Shown: piece by piece, positions 28,275 to 37,449 of the stretch
Numbering within the stretch: the stretch's first letter is position 1
Layout of the letters: every line of letters starts with the position of its first letter
DNA from: Terfezia claveryi
Taxonomy: Eukaryota > Ascomycota > Pezizomycetes > Pezizales > Pezizaceae
Assembly: GCA_015179025.1 (NCBI GenBank)
Contig: WHUX01000254.1
Coordinates: 1-64,000, forward strand
DNA length: 64,000 nucleotides
Direction of reading: 5' to 3'
Made by a program: the position numbers and the translations under genes
Notes under the pieces: generated by a model
What the model saw: the letters and a program-made list of their open reading frames with translations, nothing else
Told to the model about the DNA's origin: nothing
Database searches by the model: none

Positions 28275-28327
28275 TATATACACAGAGAAGTATTGAGAAA
28301 TAGATATATACACGGAACATGCGCGTG

Positions 28328-28432
28328 CTAACACTTGCTCTAATACTCGCTGTAATCCTCGCCCTAACACTAGCTCTAACCCTCTCGCTCTAATGCTCGC
28401 TCTAATACTCGCTCCAATACTCGCTGTAATAT
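28328..28432. repeat. 12-bp TAATACTCGCTC array in foldback copy A
   Basis: About eight diverged units. The same array is found in both arms of the foldback element at 42361-50739 and is thus part of the element. Confidence 0.8.
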
Positions 28433-28610
28433 GCTGGGAATAACGAGCAAAGGGAAAAAGCGCAGGGAAGGAAGTGTATATACAGGAAACCCATAGTTGC
28501 CAAGGCCGTAGTCATATTGGGAAATCGTAGTCGTGGTACTGCGATATGTACGGAGTTCACGCTTTGTGATATGTTTCGTAGGAATTCATGCATTCGCGGG
28601 CTTATATACC

Positions 28611-29695: not shown

Positions 29696-30532
29696 TGGAA
29701 GACCCCCCCCCCGTTTGTGAGCACAGATGAAGGAATCCCACAAGGCAGCCCTCTCTCCCCCGTTATCTGGCTAATCTATATCGCCGGAACCCTGACAAAG
29801 GCTACACACACCATCCAACAAAGACTCGAGCAGCCCAGAAGACGAAGCAAACGGATGAACAGTTTCATTGAGAAAACCCCACTAACGGTCCACATTTTCA
29901 GCTACGTCGACGACATCAAGCCGCTTATAAATAATCTCGGACCTGCCGACTAGAGAACACAACAAGGTCGTCGAGCTTGTCAACTCAACACTAAACGAGG
30001 TGGCAACAGCAGAAGAACTTACATGGGACACAGACAAGGAGAGCCGGGTCGATTTCCATGGGAAACGGATTTCATCATGCACCACACTAGGGATCCGAGT
30101 CAAGAGCAAGCTACCCTGGGACGAACACATCAAGATCCACACAAAGGAAGCAGCCAATCTGCTCACGGTCCTCGTCCGGTTAGGCAACTCCAATGACGGA
30201 ATCACCCCTCTCGCCCTAAGAGACATCTATACCGGCGCCATAAGGCCACTCTTCACTTGGGGGGCAGAAATCTTCAACAGACCAAACGCAGTTAGGTTGC
30301 TAGAACCGATGAGGAGGCTGGAGTATCAAGCCTTAAGGAAGATCACCGGGGAGCAGCCATGAGAAGCTGAGCTGGATTGCGAACATAGAACCATTACAGG
30401 ACAAGCTGGACGACATCTCAAGATCATGGGCAGCCAGAGCCCTCCGCACAGGCGACAATGAAATCAGAAATTTCCTGGCAGCAGAGCCAGCCCCCAGCCA
30501 CGCAACATGGCACAATGGTTCCATGTTGCGTG
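29696..30532 (+). pseudogene. LINE reverse transcriptase fragment, copy 3
   Basis: Plus-strand reading gives the RT palm: DEGIPQGSPLSPVIWLIYIA and TVHIFSYVDDIKPL, the catalytic YVDD. After a frameshift near 29945 come TLGIRVKSKLPWDEHI and PLALRDIYTGAIRPLFTWGA, and after another near 30355 NIEPLQDKLDDISRSWAARA. The last parts match copy 1, so this is the same LINE class carrying the piece that copies 1 and 2 lack. It is cut on the left at a C-run (29700-29709) and on the right by the Penelope-like element. Confidence 0.8.
30498..30532. repeat. 12-bp perfect hairpin at the PLE junction
   Basis: CACGCAACATGG, a 10-base loop, then CCATGTTGCGTG, directly abutting the G-run that ends the PLE repeat. 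The left half is LINE sequence; the right half looks like an inverted copy of it. Confidence 0.8.
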
Positions 30533-30979
30533 GGGGGGGAGGAAGAAAATTGTTAGAATTCCTGAAGAGTATCACGAAGCAGACAACTTGACTTGTGGGT
30601 CACTGTTGGTTTCGTCTGGATTGACTCTTCAGTGCTTGATACTTATACCTTTTCCTACCTCTAGTGTGACTCACGGTAATTGTGATTATTTCCGTGGTGT
30701 GGGTGGGCTGACCACCCTCTTCTAAAAATCTAAATTAAAAGTGTGACTCGTTCATGCATAATGGTGTGACTCATTAAACATAATTGCGTCATGCAGTCAG
30801 CAATACTAATTTGGGGGCGGTGTGCTAATCTTACCTGCATGCATGACGCATGTGCGACGGATGTGACTCCGACGTGCATGTGCATGCATGATGACTGCAT
30901 TGCGCTAATGCAGGGTAAGCGCTAGTAATATACCCTTGCTAGCGGCTATGTTTCAGTTTGGCACACTAAAAACATAACC
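30533..30979 (-). repeat. PLE terminal repeat, inverted copy
   Basis: Reverse complement of about 31070-31517, essentially without mismatch by eye. With that copy it forms a near-palindrome around a 90-bp spacer. Confidence 0.9.
30569..30642 (-). ncRNA. Hammerhead ribozyme motif (inverted PLE repeat)
   Basis: Exact reverse complement of the motif at 31409-31482. It would act in RNA transcribed leftward from the inverted repeat copy. Confidence 0.8.
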
Positions 30980-30980
30980 T

Positions 30981-31517
30981 GCTTCACCCTCCATTCCCCT
31001 CCACTTCCGCTACTCGCTTCGCTCGCCCCTCCGGGTAACCGCTCTCGTTGCGGCTCACTCTGGGTGAATTCGGTTATGTTTTTAGTGTGCCAAACTGAAA
31101 CATAGCCGCTAGCAAGGGTATATTACTAGCGCTTACCCTGCATTAGCGCAATGCAGTCATCATGCATGCACATGCACGTCGGAGTCACATCCGTCGCACA
31201 TGCGTCATGCATGCAGGTAAGATTAGCACACCGCCCCCAAATTAGTATTGCTGACTGCATGACGCAATTATGTTTAATGAGTCACACCATTATGCATGAA
31301 CGAGTCACACTTTTAATTTAGATTTTTAGAAGAGGGTGGTCAGCCCACCCACACCACGGAAATAATCACAATTACCGTGAGTCACACTAGAGGTAGGAAA
31401 AGGTATAAGTATCAAGCACTGAAGAGTCAATCCAGACGAAACCAACAGTGACCCACAAGTCAAGTTGTCTGCTTCGTGATACTCTTCAGGAATTCTAACA
31501 ATTTTCTTCCTCCCCCC
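30981..31517 (+). repeat. PLE terminal repeat, upstream direct copy
   Basis: 537 bp, from GCTTCACCCTCC to the C-run at 31512-31517; matches 34703-35239 with scattered substitutions. Confidence 0.9.
31409..31482 (+). ncRNA. Hammerhead ribozyme motif (upstream PLE repeat)
   Basis: All core bases are present: CUGAAGA (31419-31425, the CUGANGA box), stem II GUC/GAC (31426-31428 with 31435-31437, six-base loop), GAAA (31438-31441), and cleavage triplet GUC (31467-31469). Stem I pairs GUAUCA+AGCA (31409-31418) with UGCU+UGAUAC (31470-31482, UCG bulge). Stem III pairs CAAC/GUUG (31443-31446 with 31464-31467) plus UGAC/GUCA, with one bulged C at 31442. Predicted cut is between 31469 and 31470. Hammerheads in PLE terminal repeats are established; activity here is inferred. 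Confidence 0.85.
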
Positions 31518-31577
31518 GACTTTCAAAGACGAATTCTTTTTCGCACAAACAATCCATACCCACCCACGAAAACAACA

Positions 31578-32678
31578 ATGTCCTCCCTTCGTGCCATCCG
31601 CTCCCCATCTCCGTCCGCCTTCGCCGTCACCTCTTCCTCCTACGTTCAGATGAACCAATCTGTCCAACGAGCGAACCACTCTGCGCTCGCGACGTCGCTG
31701 AATGAGGTCATTGACCTTATTCCGACGAGCTATCGTGAAAGTCTCCATTCCTTTTTGGTCCAACACTACAAATTAGCTCAGACCTATTACAGGTCTAGAG
31801 CTACTTTGAGAAAGTTGGAGGAGCACAAATCACGAGGGACCTGGCCCTCTGAAATCCAGGGCATCCATGTGCCAAAAATCCAATTTTCTAAGGAATACTT
31901 GGAGGATTCCCGTGAGGGAATGGACTTGGATGACGGGAATGATCTACTCGATCAAACCTCTACTGCGAAGGTATTCCTAGCAGGTGTCGAATCGAAGGTG
32001 TTGGCCTTCCGTATGGAAATGCTCTCCCAAGCTATTACAGCAAGGGAACAGGAAGTGACATTCCTCCATACTAGACTACGTCGCCCCGCGATCCAAAAAA
32101 CCGTGGTCAATATCATTGATCAACGTTATGAAGAACTGGTAGCCCTTCATAACGCTACGGATACAACTACCTCCACTGGCAAGAATACGTCGTTTCTTAC
32201 CAACGAAAAAGGCCTGCTTTCTCAGGACATTTTCACTTATGCTACTCGAGTAGTAGATATTGCCGGAAGCAAGGCAATAGCAGAGCTGGAAACAGCTCTG
32301 AATAAGATGAAATTGAAGGACGCTGCGAAAGACCCCCAACAGGGTCCAGCTATCACCCAAGATAGTCTGGCTGACACGGTTCGCAAAGCCGTCCAAGACG
32401 CTCTTCGAAAAGAGAAAGGTACGATCCCTCAGCGATCATTATCTAACTCAAATTGTGTCGATTATAGATTCGAAGAGAAAAGGCAACGGAAAGGGCAAAA
32501 CGCCAGCAAAGCTGGCGAAAAACACTCCTCAAAAACTTCAAACGGGAAGAAGAGGAAGCGAGCCGAATCCAACGCCGCCACTTCAGCGACGAAAGTGAAG
32601 AAGACAAAGAGTCAGAAAAAGACTCAGAAGGTATGTGGACCTGGTCCAACCCATCGTCTTATCCAGACCGTTTACTAA
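31578..32678 (+). CDS. PLE ORF1 protein
   Basis: The ATG at 31578 has a good context (ACAACAATGTCC) and lies just past the upstream terminal repeat; the frame is open for 366 residues. It is rich in charged residues with long helical, coiled-coil-prone segments (about 45-130 and 160-275) and ends in a lysine-rich tail (GKKRKRAES, KVKKTKSQKK) that could be a nuclear localisation or RNA-binding signal. No named domain is recognised. A canonical-looking 49-bp intron (GTACGA...CTAAC...TTATAG, about 32418-32467) sits in the frame; using it would change frame and end the protein near 32600. The acidic N-terminus of the RT frame overlaps its 3' end. Confidence 0.6.
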   Translation: MSSLRAIRSPSPSAFAVTSSSYVQMNQSVQRANHSALATSLNEVIDLIPTSYRESLHSFLVQHYKLAQTYYRSRATLRKLEEHKSRGTWPSEIQGIHVPKIQFSKEYLEDSREGMDLDDGNDLLDQTSTAKVFLAGVESKVLAFRMEMLSQAITAREQEVTFLHTRLRRPAIQKTVVNIIDQRYEELVALHNATDTTTSTGKNTSFLTNEKGLLSQDIFTYATRVVDIAGSKAIAELETALNKMKLKDAAKDPQQGPAITQDSLADTVRKAVQDALRKEKGTIPQRSLSNSNCVDYRFEEKRQRKGQNASKAGEKHSSKTSNGKKRKRAESNAATSATKVKKTKSQKKTQKVCGPGPTHRLIQTVY

Positions 32679-34586
32679 ACATCCCTTTCAACCAAGCAGT
32701 GATGGAAATTCGTCAGCGTATGCCACTGGCATTGTTGGACTCACTTAGATTTCGGTGAGGAGTACATCTGTTGGAAGGAGTGGAATTGCCACATGACGTG
32801 GCGAATTCCATTAGCAAGGGTTTCCGCTTTATGTTTAGTACTGAAATAAACTCTTCTATTGTCTTACGTGATTATGAACATTTTTGCAATACCATTAGAT
32901 GGAAATGTCATTTTAATGGTAAAGACAATAAAGCATATGACCACCGCTACTCTTTAGGTTCCGATACACCAGTATCAGCTCCTAAAGCGTCAGTACCTGT
33001 CGAAGCAGGGTTGGCCGAGGGACGTTCTCGATTATGTCGAATGATCGAAGAAGCACCTAAAACAACTGGCATCAATAACTAAGGGATGAAAGATGCAGCA
33101 AAACTGCTGGAGTACTTGAAAAAACACGACTTTTTCGTAACAAGTACAGACAAGAATCTTGGTACTGCTGTAGTATCCCGAACATGGTATATTATGCAAT
33201 GCAATGATTACTTAGCCAATGATAGATCGATAACCAAGATCAACGTTGATAAGTGTCATGAAGTTATGAAAAACTTGCAAACACACTTGGACCAGATTGT
33301 TCAGTCGGATACCTATTCCCTGACTGAACAAGAGGAAAATTTCCTACTGGCTAATGCTTGGAACGAAGATATTCGGAAGCTGCCACGCTTTAGTGGACTC
33401 CCGAAAATCCATAAAAAACTGACCAAGTTTAGACCAATCATTCCTTGCCACAGTTTCACGGGTGAAACTGCTGCGTCCATGTTGTGTAACCTCTTGGAAG
33501 ATGAAGTTAAAACATCACCTACGATTCTACTTAACAGTAGAACGCTAGCCCAAGAACTGTTAAAGGTTAAAGTTCTTTTGGTATGAAAGCTTTTATGCTT
33601 TCAGCGGATGTAGAAGCATTCTACCCGAATGTCCCGCTTATTGCTATTCACGATGTGGTCGAAGCTGCGGCTTCTAAACATCATGGAGAGATCAAAGGCA
33701 AACTTGCCCGAGAACTCTGTTCAATTGCGAACAACTACCTTGTTTTTCGGTATGGTAGTAATTTGTTCTTGCAAACGGATGGATTAGCAATGGGAGTTGC
33801 AAGCTCTCCACATATTGCTAATCTATACGGGGCTAAATATGAATAACATATGATCAAAGATCCTCGAGTACTTCTGTACAAAAGGTATATCGATGACATA
33901 TTTACTATAATCCTCACGCCAAATGAAAGTTTAGTGCTGGAATATGCCAAAGAGGGCCTGAATTTCCCAGGTCTTAAGCTCAAATGGGAAGTGGATAAAT
34001 ACCGTATGGTATTTTTGGATCTAGAAGTTATGCACACCCCGTCTATAGGGAGGTTCGACTTCAGACCATACAGGAAACCACTAAACCATTTCGAACGAAT
34101 CTCATTCTCTTCAAGGCATCCAAAGTGGATGAAAAAAGGAACTTTCCTTGGAGAGATGAGTCGGCTCACTGCCTTGTCGTCTAATGCAGACATATACAAG
34201 CAATCGGTTGAGGAACTTGCCTCTATTTACCTCAGCCGAGAGTACCCACTCGTTTTGGTTAAAGAATGGATTACCCGTAACTACAATACAAGATGGGAAA
34301 ACCGGTACCGTATGGTCAAACCAGCGGAGTGGATAACATCATGGTAGTTAAATCCGTTCTTAATCCAATATGGGATTTTATAGATGTACGAAATGTACAA
34401 CAAGGAATTCAAGAAGTCTGGCAGGGAAGCCAAATCCCTCCTAAACTTCTCGAAGCAACATTGATTATTAGTCGTAAAAAAACTATTAACTTCGGCGACT
34501 TGTGTCAAAGATTCAATGCTAAATTCCTTGAAACATTTCCAGATGATACCACCCTCGAAGACTTATTCGAAAGTCTACATCTGTAA
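32538..34586 (+). pseudogene. PLE reverse transcriptase, broken
   Basis: The frame overlaps the end of ORF1 (acidic FSDESEEDKESEKDSEG), then shows PLE landmarks: N-terminal PFNQAVMEIRQRMPLALLDS; TSTDKNLGTAVV (about 33146); SGLPKIHKKLTKFRPIIP (about 33392, the GLPKxHK box); LSADVEAFYPNVP (D at 33607); LAMGVASSPHIANLYGAKYE (about 33787); and YKRYIDDIF (catalytic DD at about 33892-33897). Breaks are a TGA near 32757, TAA at 33080-33082, a one-base loss in a T-run near 33575, TAA at 33844-33846 and a shift near 34330. The C-terminal part (IPPKLLEATLIISRKK and onward to 34586) has no GIY-YIG motifs. Confidence 0.85.
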
Positions 34587-34702
34587 AAATAATATGGTGG
34601 CGTATTCTAAAAACATAACCTGTAAGTTCCCACTTCAGGATAAGTGAGTCAGAATACTAGTTTGGGCTATACGCTAATACCCAGGAAACGGGAAAATGAA
34701 GG

Positions 34703-35239
34703 CTTCACCCTCCGTTCCCCTCCACTTCCGCTACTCACTTCGCTCGCCCCTCTGGGTAACCGCTCTCGTTGCGGCTCACTCTGAGTGAATTCGGTTATGT
34801 TTTTAGTGTACCACACTGAAACATAGCCGCTAGCAAGGGTATATTACTAGCACTTACCCTGCATTAGCGCAATGCAGTCATCATGCATGCACATGCACGT
34901 CTGAGTCACACCCGTCGCACATGCGTCATGCATGCAGGTAAGATTAGCACACCGCCCCCAAATTAGTATTGCTGACTGCATGACGCAATCATGTTTAATG
35001 AGTCACACCATTATGCATGAACGAGTCACACTTTTAATTTAGATTTTTAGAAGAGGGTGGTCAGCCCACCCATACTACGGAAATAATCAAAATTACCGTG
35101 AGTCACATCAGAGGTAGGAAAAGGTATAAGTATCAAGCACTGAAGAGTCAATTCAGACGAAACCAACAGTGACCCACAAGTCAAGTTGTCTGCTTCGTGA
35201 TACTCTTCAGGAATTCTAACAATTTTCTTCCTCCCCCCC
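34703..35239 (+). repeat. PLE terminal repeat, downstream direct copy
   Basis: 537 bp, same limits as 30981-31517. It forms the 3' end of the element and joins the gypsy fragment after the C-run. Confidence 0.9.
35130..35203 (+). ncRNA. Hammerhead ribozyme motif (downstream PLE repeat)
   Basis: Same fold as at 31409-31482. The one visible difference is in loop II (AATTCA instead of AATCCA), which leaves every core base and stem pair intact. Predicted cut is between 35190 and 35191. Self-cleavage at this copy and the upstream one would release a unit-length RNA of 3,721 nt. Confidence 0.85.
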
Positions 35240-35772
35240 TGCATTCTAAGCCATGGGATTCCGAGGACAATTGGGTACTTGAGCTTTGTAACGAACATAG
35301 GGAGGCTTTCGGAGTGGTCCCCAATCTAGGCAGGAGTACATGCGATATCGGTGATGGCTCCAGAAGAGATAGGTCGGCCATCAATGACATCGAGGAGGCG
35401 GGGGGTTTTGAGCTTAGAGGTGGGTATGGCATGCTTACTGACAAAGGTCTGGTCGATGAAGGCAATTCCTGAGGCTCCACAGTCTATGAGAGCTGATGTG
35501 ACGAGTGTTTTACCATTGAAGGATATCGTGATAGGTACAACAAAATGCTCACCAAATAGGTGAGACTCGTCAACAGACATAGAAGGAACAGAAAAAGACG
35601 ACAAAGACAGGTGACCTAATGCAGGTCCCTTGCTAGTGTCAGTAACTAGGCAAGAGACTCCACTTTTCCCGACTCCTCTGGGGTCTCGGACACCGCATGT
35701 ATGGCTAGGGAGCGATTCTTTCGAAGGGGGCAAGCCGCAATGAAGTGGTCGGCCTTCCCACAGGCTATGCAT
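35240..35772 (-). pseudogene. gypsy 2 aspartic protease, truncated
   Basis: Frame -1 relative to gag. It contains SALIDCGASGIAFIDQTF (the D-x-G-A active-site loop, here DCGA as in gypsy 1), VIDGRPISSGAITDI and, after one in-frame TAG near 35326, KLKYPIVLGIPWLRMQ, which stops at the PLE. It would process the polyprotein if whole. Confidence 0.75.
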
Positions 35773-36779
35773 AGCCCATTATTCCGGTGGCGTTCCCTCT
35801 CTTCTTGGGTCAGGCAAGGCCTGCTTGCCGATAGATCCATAAGCGCTGGTCCACCGGCTACGAGGGAAGGGTAGGCTGGTTTGTTGGTAATAGGGGTCTG
35901 TGGCTGAGTACGAGCAGGTGAGAAAGTCGAGCGGGGGGCTGTGGTGGGGGAGGCCTTCAGGCTATTTCTAAACCTGGCCATCTTTTGCTCCAATCGGCTA
36001 GCCTGATTAATGAACTCTTCGAGGGTGTGGACATCTGGGAAATTGATGAGTGCCTGCCTTAGCTCCACGCTTAGGCCTTCCTGGAATTGATTCAATTTTA
36101 TTTTGTCACTCCAGTCGACTTCAGCAGCCAACCTAGAGAATTCAGCCACATAGGTGGCGAGGTCAGTGTTCTTTTGTCGAAGGGCTCGAAGGGCTCTTGT
36201 GGCCGTTCCTTCTGGATCCGGATCCCCAAGCGCTCGGTCAAGGATAATGAATAAGGCGGAAATGTCAGCTAGATTGATCCCTGTTCCCAAAACATAGGGC
36301 TGGACTTGGTCCAAAGCCTTCCCCTCCAGCAGGCCGTAAACGTAGGTGAGTTTGTGCTGAGTGGTTGGAAATTTAGCAGCATCTCCATTGAGCTTAATAT
36401 TGATCAAGTTTTTCCAGGCCTTGAGGCGGGCCCATTCAGCATTAAATTTGGGTGGGGTGGAGAGGTCTTGGGTTTTGGCGGGCATGGCAGTCGCCGGTGC
36501 CTGTGCGGTTGCGGCGGCAAGGGCACGGTTGAGATTGCGAATGGTTACTCGGTCGTCTGCAAGGTCCTCTTGGAGTAGAAGGATTTCATCTTCGGCTTCT
36601 TTCAGCCTTCGTTCGGTGTTCTGGAGCTCCGCTCCTTGTTTTTCGCCAATCTTATAGGTGGCAGTGAAGATATTGATGGCCATTCGGCGGTATTCCAACA
36701 GCTGGGCAGGGTCTGAGGGTATTGGGGTTTCCCTCCATGCTTGGAACCTGTCGGTGGGTAACGGGGTTGGTTCGGACAT
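35646..36779 (-). CDS. gypsy 2 Gag capsid/nucleocapsid
   Basis: The ATG at 36777-36779 (MSEPTPLPTDRFQAWRE) is chosen because it lies just downstream of the LTR; upstream codons of the open frame fall in the LTR. It has 377 residues: an N-terminal coiled coil (about 40-95), a Retrotrans_gag core (about 110-240, ALDQVQPYV, TYVAEFSRLA), and a CCHC zinc knuckle CIACGKADHFIAACP near the end (C-x2-C-x4-H-x4-C). Gag forms the virus-like particle and binds the RNA. The frame is intact although the downstream pol is lost. Confidence 0.85.
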   Translation of the reverse strand: MSEPTPLPTDRFQAWRETPIPSDPAQLLEYRRMAINIFTATYKIGEKQGAELQNTERRLKEAEDEILLLQEDLADDRVTIRNLNRALAAATAQAPATAMPAKTQDLSTPPKFNAEWARLKAWKNLINIKLNGDAAKFPTTQHKLTYVYGLLEGKALDQVQPYVLGTGINLADISALFIILDRALGDPDPEGTATRALRALRQKNTDLATYVAEFSRLAAEVDWSDKIKLNQFQEGLSVELRQALINFPDVHTLEEFINQASRLEQKMARFRNSLKASPTTAPRSTFSPARTQPQTPITNKPAYPSLVAGGPALMDLSASRPCLTQEERERHRNNGLCIACGKADHFIAACPLRKNRSLAIHAVSETPEESGKVESLA

Positions 36780-36815
36780 GACAGCGTACCAGTTGGTCGA
36801 GAAGATCCAACGTAG

Positions 36816-37449
36816 TGTAACGAGGGCTCTGGGGGACAAGGCGACCAAGGGGTATGCCGGGGAAGTGGCAAGGGGCAATCGCACACGTAGGAGCGCTACG
36901 TGTGTGATCTGGGGAAAGGCTAGGGTAAGATACACATAGGAATGCTACGTGTGTGACTAGGAGTAGGCTGAGATGGGGGGGCAAGGGCAAGAGGCAAGAG
37001 AGGCAGAGGGCAAGGGACACAAGACACACGGAAGCAGTTGCTGCATGTGTCAAGGGAGGCAGCTAGGCTGCAGAGACAAGGCGAGGAGGTGCACAAGGGA
37101 GATGCACCAATGTGGAGAGAAGCAAGGCCCTGTATTGGATATACAAGATGTTGGATGGGGATTCAATGAGAGGGCGGAGGGACGAAGATATATATATATG
37201 ATTCCAGGCCAATGCCGTGGAAGGAATAAGCTTTCCGAGATTCCTATCTCGGAAGCTAAGATAACAATCACCTATCGATGACACTCGAACAAGCCTGTTC
37301 GAGTGTCAAAACAACACGACACCCGAACAAGCCTGTTCGAGTGTCAAATCAAGACTAAGAACACGGTTGTGACATCAATCAACAATTACAAGAGTCGGAC
37401 GGAATCCCGTCTGACTCTCAAACCCGGCTAGGAAAGGACGGTTGTGACA
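36816..37449 (-). repeat. gypsy 2 5' LTR
   Basis: It begins TGTAACG on the plus strand and ends at a GTTGTGACA; two such ends exist, 37374 and 37449, so the length is 559 or 634 bp. It holds the hairpin repeats at 37276-37352 and a TATATATATA run at 37187-37198. No second LTR is present to prove the limits. Confidence 0.6.
37276..37425. repeat. LTR hairpin repeats (GACACTCGAACAAG type)
   Basis: Two imperfect palindromes of the type GACACTCGAACAAGCCTG then TTCGAGTGTC (about 37279-37307 and 37319-37346), followed by a third hairpin with a different sequence but the same shape (GAGTCGGACGG...CCGTCTGACTC, about 37393-37418). Compare the three hairpins in each gypsy 1 LTR. Confidence 0.8.

What the first reader, a model, noticed from the sequence alone, without database searches (positions are those of the whole stretch)
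31409..31482. Complete hammerhead ribozyme core in the PLE terminal repeats, in all three copies
Every invariant base (CUGANGA, GAAA, paired 15.1/16.1, GUC cleavage triplet) is present and three stems form around it. The other direct copy (35130-35203) differs only in loop II, and the inverted copy (30569-30642) is identical. Hammerheads in Penelope-like elements are established from animals and others; a fungal endonuclease-lacking PLE with spaced direct copies would give defined 3,721-nt RNA units. Oddities: one bulged C in stem III and a longer, two-part stem III.
Basis: partly seen in the sequence, partly recalled or inferred. Interest (0 to 1): 0.88.

Follow-up and report, generated by a model that had tools for sequence, protein, structure and literature searches.

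The report
Hammerhead ribozyme in a fungal retrotransposon
A fungal jumping gene carries a small self-cutting RNA motif in its end repeats, as relatives in other organisms do; the next few bases look able to switch it off, and the copies left in the genome look as if they were made from uncut RNA.

Summary
All three copies carry a full hammerhead core (CUGANGA, GAAA, A15.1-U16.1, GUC) inside three stems. A descriptor of this fold matches only these three places in the window; chance gives 0.011 per 64 kb. The only Rfam match of each 90-nt segment at E<=10 is RAGATH-1-hammerhead, in register but weak (13.3-13.9 bits, gathering 56.3). The host is a Penelope-like element (PLE) with a reverse transcriptase and no recognisable GIY-YIG nuclease. 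PLE hammerheads are known in print, fungal ones by recall of a paper not held: a new member of a known kind. Not supported: self-cut 3,721-nt units as the transposition intermediate. 47 of 49 repeat places reach the same C-run, 48 nt past the cut; none ends at the cut. A 9-nt stretch just downstream (ACUCUUCAG) complements the core CUGAAGAGU exactly; with it the active fold is about 7 kcal/mol worse than the locked one. The inverted repeat would also bury the 5' ribozyme in read-through RNA. Best reading: a hammerhead that can cut only briefly, and copies made from uncut RNA primed at the C-run on both ends of a DNA break. Cleavage is untested; covariation is inconclusive.

The parts
31409..31482 (+). 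hammerhead motif in the 5' direct repeat; predicted cut between 31469 and 31470
35130..35203 (+). hammerhead motif in the 3' direct repeat; predicted cut between 35190 and 35191; one letter differs (loop II)
30569..30642 (-). hammerhead motif in the inverted repeat, identical to 31409-31482
31481..31489 (+). anti-core ACTCTTCAG, exact complement of the ribozyme core CTGAAGAGT at 31419-31427
35202..35210 (+). anti-core of the 3' copy
31490..31517 (+). tail ending in CTTCCTCCCCCC; common 3' end of the repeats, inferred start of reverse transcription
30534..30989 (-). inverted pLTR (456 nt, 99% complementary to 31062-31517)
30990..31061 (.). 72-nt loop between inverted arms; found in either orientation in other copies; inferred RNA 5' end
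31062..31517 (+). 5' direct pLTR
31578..34583 (+). PLE coding region, from the first ATG of the open frame 31476-32678 to the last codons; broken in this copy (several frames, stops); reverse transcriptase part about 33086-34344
34702..35239 (+). 3' direct pLTR with its copy of the loop (3,721 nt from the 5' copy)
30498..30533 (+). left junction: LINE-like sequence, then a 10-nt snap-back copy of itself (30524-30533), then the inverted pLTR

Best explanation
The segment is a type I hammerhead ribozyme near the 3' end of the pseudo-LTR of a fungal PLE without a recognisable endonuclease. Shown: the core, the possible stems, the predicted cut 48 nt before the repeat's C-run end, the anti-core complement, and the repeat architecture. 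Inferred: (1) it can cut only in the short interval after the 3' strand of stem I leaves the polymerase and before the anti-core does; afterwards the anti-core locks CUGAAGAGU and the RNA stays whole; (2) whole RNAs, starting near the 72-nt loop, are the transposition templates; (3) reverse transcription starts at the C-run of either repeat, primed by the 3' ends of a staggered or resected break; (4) the two cDNAs meet head to head at the loop, leaving a long arm (pLTR-ORF-pLTR) and a short or long inverted arm. The ribozyme would then separate tandem transcripts, or serve as a 3'-end fold next to the priming tail, and not make the template.
For: Core and stems beyond chance in the repeats of a PLE, the setting where hammerheads are established (passages read). 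RAGATH-1-hammerhead is the only Rfam match of each segment at E<=10. Of 40 near-full repeats (one diverged row of 41 dropped, 8 partial places not counted), 1 of 12 core sites varies against 121 of 382 sites outside the motif; the free core position N7 varies, A to G, in 2 copies. Locked fold favoured by 6.9 and 6.4 kcal/mol in RNA to the repeat end; 34 of 41 near-full repeats keep both strands of the 9-bp helix. 47 of 49 places reach the C-run, 0 end at the cut; of the 47, 17 run into the element's own 5' coding side and 30 into something else, mostly flanking DNA. 12 of 18 regions show head-to-head arms, two of them full-size inverted dimers. One insertion (C97) has a 150-bp direct duplication at its two junctions, 98.7% identical. 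Internal initiation of reverse transcription, with ribozyme cleavage not needed for insertion in vitro, is reported for an animal PLE (PMC11167929, passages).
Against: No covariation beyond shuffles. Rfam scores far below gathering. The bare 74-mer already prefers other folds, by 3.3 and 4.1 kcal/mol for the full hammerhead fold, or 0.9 and 1.7 if only the core must be free, so folding energies may misjudge this RNA, and they ignore tertiary contacts. Low core variation is weak evidence: 12 sites, few C and G, while most changes are C>T and G>A. Diverged copies do not keep the anti-core helix. No transcript data. Only 1 of 9 loci with both flanks shows a target duplication; the window's two flanks are not shown to be one target.
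Confidence: 0.55

Rival explanations
1. One reading: both repeats cut efficiently, giving 3,721-nt units (possibly circles) that are the transposition template.
For: Complete core in both direct copies at a spacing of 3,721 nt; circular RNAs are reported for retrozymes (abstracts listed).
Against: No repeat place ends within 8 nt of the cut. The one piece starting near it (C26, repeat position 414) is the far side of an internal deletion. Complete copies keep the whole 5' pLTR and the tail. The anti-core and the inverted arm oppose folding. A circle read more than once round and stopped at the loop is not excluded.
Confidence: 0.15
2. The working structure is the 9-bp core/anti-core hairpin, a 3' signal bound by the reverse transcriptase; the hammerhead is a relic or no longer cuts.
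For: It is the predicted minimum-energy fold of the repeat 3' end in both direct copies; 34 of 41 near-full repeats keep both strands of the helix exactly.
Against: It does not explain why GAAA, GUC and three stems occur at hammerhead spacing or why the motif aligns in register with a hammerhead model. Of the 7 repeats without the exact helix, several keep it as G-U pairs, so the counts do not separate the two folds; the diverged C34 copy loses both the helix and the hammerhead core.
Confidence: 0.22
3. Chance resemblance.
For: Rfam scores are weak; loose core patterns are common: 66 places in the genome against 48 for the reversed control pattern.
Against: 0.011 expected per 64 kb for the full descriptor and about 8e-5 in the repeat, and it lies where PLE hammerheads are known to lie.
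Confidence: 0.05

Closest known systems
Hammerhead motifs of Penelope-like elements (Cervera and De la Pena 2014, not held; cited in passages read)
   Same: Type I hammerhead core in the repeats of a PLE. By recall, that paper already describes fungal PLE ribozymes that fold as monomers.
   Different: Long two-part stem III and bulged C, while PLE motifs are described as usually minimal, lacking helix III (PMC6155905 and PMC7761336, passages); a perfect anti-core just downstream.
Poseidon PAc element of Anolis (PMC11167929, passages)
   Same: Hammerhead at the pLTR-ORF junction; reverse transcription starts inside the RNA; [quoted passage not shown]
   Different: PAc carries a GIY-YIG endonuclease; here none is found, and the inferred start is a C-run.
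Penelope copies of Adineta vaga (PMC3846280, passages)
   Same: Two direct pLTRs plus an adjacent inverted pLTR, palindromes at the inverted junction, optional tail.
   Different: Those elements carry an endonuclease and, in several copies, target duplications of 8-10 bp; here one 150-bp duplication in 9 loci tested.
Terminons, endonuclease-deficient PLEs (PMC6431247, passages)
   Same: 3'-terminal hammerhead followed by a C-rich tail; no endonuclease joined to the RT.
   Different: Their tail is reverse-complement telomeric repeat and they sit at telomeres; here the tail ends in a plain C-run and no doubled telomeric repeat lies in the 18 regions read.
RAGATH-1-hammerhead (Rfam RF03152)
   Same: Core aligns in register in all three copies.
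   Different: 13.3-13.9 bits against a gathering score of 56.3; not filed as a member.

Membership tests
hammerhead ribozyme (general) | CUGANGA, GAAA, A15.1-U16.1 and NUH cut triplet | tested here: met
   which letters define the core is recalled
hammerhead ribozyme (general) | three stems around the core | tested here: met
   22 of 22 pairs possible, though not the minimum-energy fold
hammerhead ribozyme (general) | compensatory changes in the stems | tested here: inconclusive
   2 of 22 pairs with a change on both sides; 61 of 500 shuffles reach that; 19 variants of one genome only
hammerhead ribozyme (general) | Mg-dependent self-cleavage at C17 | not testable with these tools
   needs RNA
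Rfam RF03152 RAGATH-1-hammerhead | gathering score 56.3 bits | tested here: not met
   13.3, 13.9 and 13.3 bits
Penelope-like element | telomerase-like reverse transcriptase | tested here: inconclusive
   RVT_1 in L046, L042 and P0004; telomerase RTs among the best folds but beside Prp8 and group II intron RTs, all with low TM-scores; no call labels the RT as PLE, the RT motifs are recognised by recall
Penelope-like element | direct pLTRs with an inverted pLTR | tested here: met
   feature as described in PMC3846280
Penelope-like element, canonical | GIY-YIG endonuclease | tested here: not met
   no Pfam GIY-YIG match in the window pieces, L046, L042 or P0004
telomeric endonuclease-deficient PLE (Athena, Coprina, Terminons) | attachment to telomeric repeats | tested here: not met
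   no doubled TTAGGG or CCCTAA in 18 regions; the exact TTAGGGx4 search hit only C483, which has no repeat place; the assembly may lack most chromosome ends
Coprina clade | RT phylogeny | not tested
   no reference RTs labelled by clade were at hand

The most novel reading that the evidence does not exclude
A ribozyme with a built-in timer: a complement to its own catalytic core begins 12 nt past the cut site, so that each transcript is either cut while nascent or locked whole, and only locked RNAs become templates, copied from the C-run onto both ends of a DNA break by a PLE that needs no endonuclease of its own.
Probability: 0.2. Interest if true: 0.65.

Novelty: new member of a known kind. 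Interest (0 to 1): 0.42.

Why it matters
What hammerheads do for PLEs is called unknown in a review read here in passages (PMC7761336). This family offers some 40 near-full repeats in about a dozen loci with both the ribozyme and the insertion record kept, so cutting, locking and template choice can be tested in one element. It also suggests a route for a PLE without its own nuclease to enter internal sites.

Tried and rejected
Rfam at gathering on the window and at E<=5 on 30401-35500: no hammerhead. Other PLE families in the genome as independent witnesses: the window RT piece and the Rosellinia protein P0004 found this family, an 80% relative on C34 and a decayed piece on C4 (such counts are lower bounds by the tool's own note); the diverged copies carry many C>T and G>A changes and are no use for covariation. 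Loci from other species: viral contigs and genome contigs gave none. Telomere link: not seen. Empty site of the window insertion: the left flank matches LINE-like sequence on C341; the right flank found no partner among the loci held and was not searched in the whole genome. The sigma-70 promoter scan means nothing for a eukaryote. A Ty3 gag search meant to name the host gave only unnamed proteins. Paper searches: I saw listings, and passages of six papers; none of those passages describes a fungal PLE hammerhead. The 2014 paper that by recall does is not held.

Full report
What was checked. The window is part of contig C173 of a 72.6-Mb assembly. Each holds the hammerhead core letters in order, three possible stems and a GUC cut triplet. 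The cut sites in the direct repeats are 3,721 nt apart.

Is it more than chance? A descriptor of core plus minimal stems finds these three places and nothing else in the window; 1,076 Mb of simulated first-order Markov sequence gives 179 hits on both strands, or 0.011 per 64 kb and about 8e-5 for one 456-nt repeat. The looser core pattern alone is not informative: 66 places in the genome against 48 for the reversed control. Rfam gives no gathering hit and no hammerhead at E<=5 in a 5.1-kb stretch. Given 90 nt alone, the only match at E<=10 among 4,227 families is RAGATH-1-hammerhead, core aligned in register, in all three copies, at 13.3-13.9 bits against a gathering score of 56.3.

Variation among copies. 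The 456-nt repeat has 49 BLAST places in the genome, a lower bound by the tool's own note. Of these, 41 are near full length; one diverged row was set aside, leaving 40, and 8 partial places were not counted. One of 12 core sites varies, in one copy (G5 to A), against 121 of 382 sites outside the motif. Among the places left out, one has A6 changed to G, the C34 relatives have several core changes, and one C26 repeat lacks most of the motif. This fits constraint but is weak: the core is short and poor in C and G, while 89 of 137 minor alleles are C>T or G>A. In 19 distinct motif variants 97.8% of cells pair, but covariation does not exceed shuffles. No DNA of relatives from other species could be reached.

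The element. L046 and L042, other copies, have open frames of 741 and 939 aa with an RVT_1 match and no GIY-YIG match. The window copy is split over several frames with stops. Named relatives include proteins from Rosellinia, Agaricus, Armillaria and Tulasnella (best 120 of 220 listed), which supports a fungal host; the species is not known. A model of L046 (pLDDT 74.8) has telomerase RTs among its best PDB matches, beside Prp8 and group II intron RTs, with low TM-scores. [quoted passage not shown] It is filed as a PLE on that architecture and on RT motifs known by recall; no call names the RT as PLE. It is not filed with the telomeric endonuclease-deficient PLEs, because no telomeric repeats were found beside it.

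Insertion record. 47 of 49 repeat places reach the C-run, whose end lies 48 nt past the predicted cut; the other two are a copy with an internal deletion and a decayed piece; none ends within 8 nt of the cut. Of the 47, 17 continue into the element's own 5' coding side and 30 into something else: mostly flanking DNA, three times an inner part of the coding region, once another copy. In 12 of 18 regions two repeats face each other across a loop, which in 10 of the 12 is 71-74 nt and occurs in both orientations; the other six regions are contig edges, fragments or a tandem. C229 and C144 hold full-size head-to-head dimers; C173, C398, C26, C8, C97, C78, C167 and C724 have one arm made of the repeat alone, joined to its flank at the C-run; on C341 both arms join the coding part at the same internal base. 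A simple account is that reverse transcription starts at the C-run of either repeat and runs to an RNA 5' end in the loop, once from each side of a break. C97 shows a 150-bp target duplication, 98.7% identical; the other 8 loci with both flanks show none in the 500-1000 nt tested on the left and 449-600 nt on the right. The C144 compound locus was not among the nine; its outer flanks share a 280-nt direct match (97.5%) that does not touch the junctions. At the window's left junction the LINE-like target is followed by a 10-nt snap-back copy of itself before the repeat begins, which suggests repair at a broken end. Self-priming on an antisense template, proposed in PMC3846280 for head-to-head repeats (passage), is an alternative that these data do not exclude.

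Why cutting may be rare. The bare 74-mer already prefers another fold, by 3.3 and 4.1 kcal/mol over the full hammerhead fold, or by 0.9 and 1.7 if only the core must be free. Directly downstream lies ACUCUUCAG, the exact complement of CUGAAGAGU in the core; in RNA reaching the repeat end the hammerhead fold is 6.9 and 6.4 kcal/mol worse than the locked one. 34 of 41 near-full repeats keep both strands exactly. By my own arithmetic a 9-nt complement to that very stretch within some 40 nt has a probability of about 1.5e-4, but it was noticed after the fact. In read-through RNA the 5' motif pairs over all 74 nt with the inverted arm. The genomic copies fit this: their templates seem to have kept both ribozymes. 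That cutting happens only in nascent RNA is inference.

Novelty. PLE hammerheads are established in papers whose passages were read, and fungal ones by recall of the abstract of Cervera and De la Pena 2014, which is not held. The motif is therefore a new member of a known kind. The anti-core and the two-ended insertion record are what a specialist might find worth following; whether the anti-core is in print was not searched for by itself.

Noticed in passing
L041 (C26:76603-77013): The 5' repeat of this copy lacks 46 nt inside the hammerhead (repeat positions 368-413); the deletion does not start or end at the cut site and may be a jump across a structured template.
   Followed up: partly
L037 (C97:50700-56300): 150-bp direct duplication flanking the element, far longer than the 8-10 bp reported for endonuclease-bearing Penelope copies in PMC3846280.
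   Followed up: yes
L045 (C341:5419-6402): Both inverted arms join the coding region at the same internal base, directly after the C-run.
   Followed up: partly
L031 (C34:131500-137600), L032 and L033 (C4): Diverged copies; those on C34 show many C>T and G>A changes, like repeat-induced point mutation.
   Followed up: partly
window 35646-36935 (-): Gag-like ORF of a Ty3-type retrotransposon (Retrotrans_gag), near the element's right junction.
   Followed up: partly
window 28316-28441: Degenerate 12-nt-period repeats; related stretches lie near 42.7-43.0 kb and 50.2 kb.
   Followed up: no
L043 and L044 (C167, C78): Two copies share an identical right flank over 562 nt but have different left flanks.
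   Followed up: no
L038 and L039 (C144): The outer flanks of a compound locus share a 280-nt direct match that also occurs twice in the window (near 43.0 and 48.4 kb), perhaps a dispersed or tandem repeat as target.
   Followed up: no
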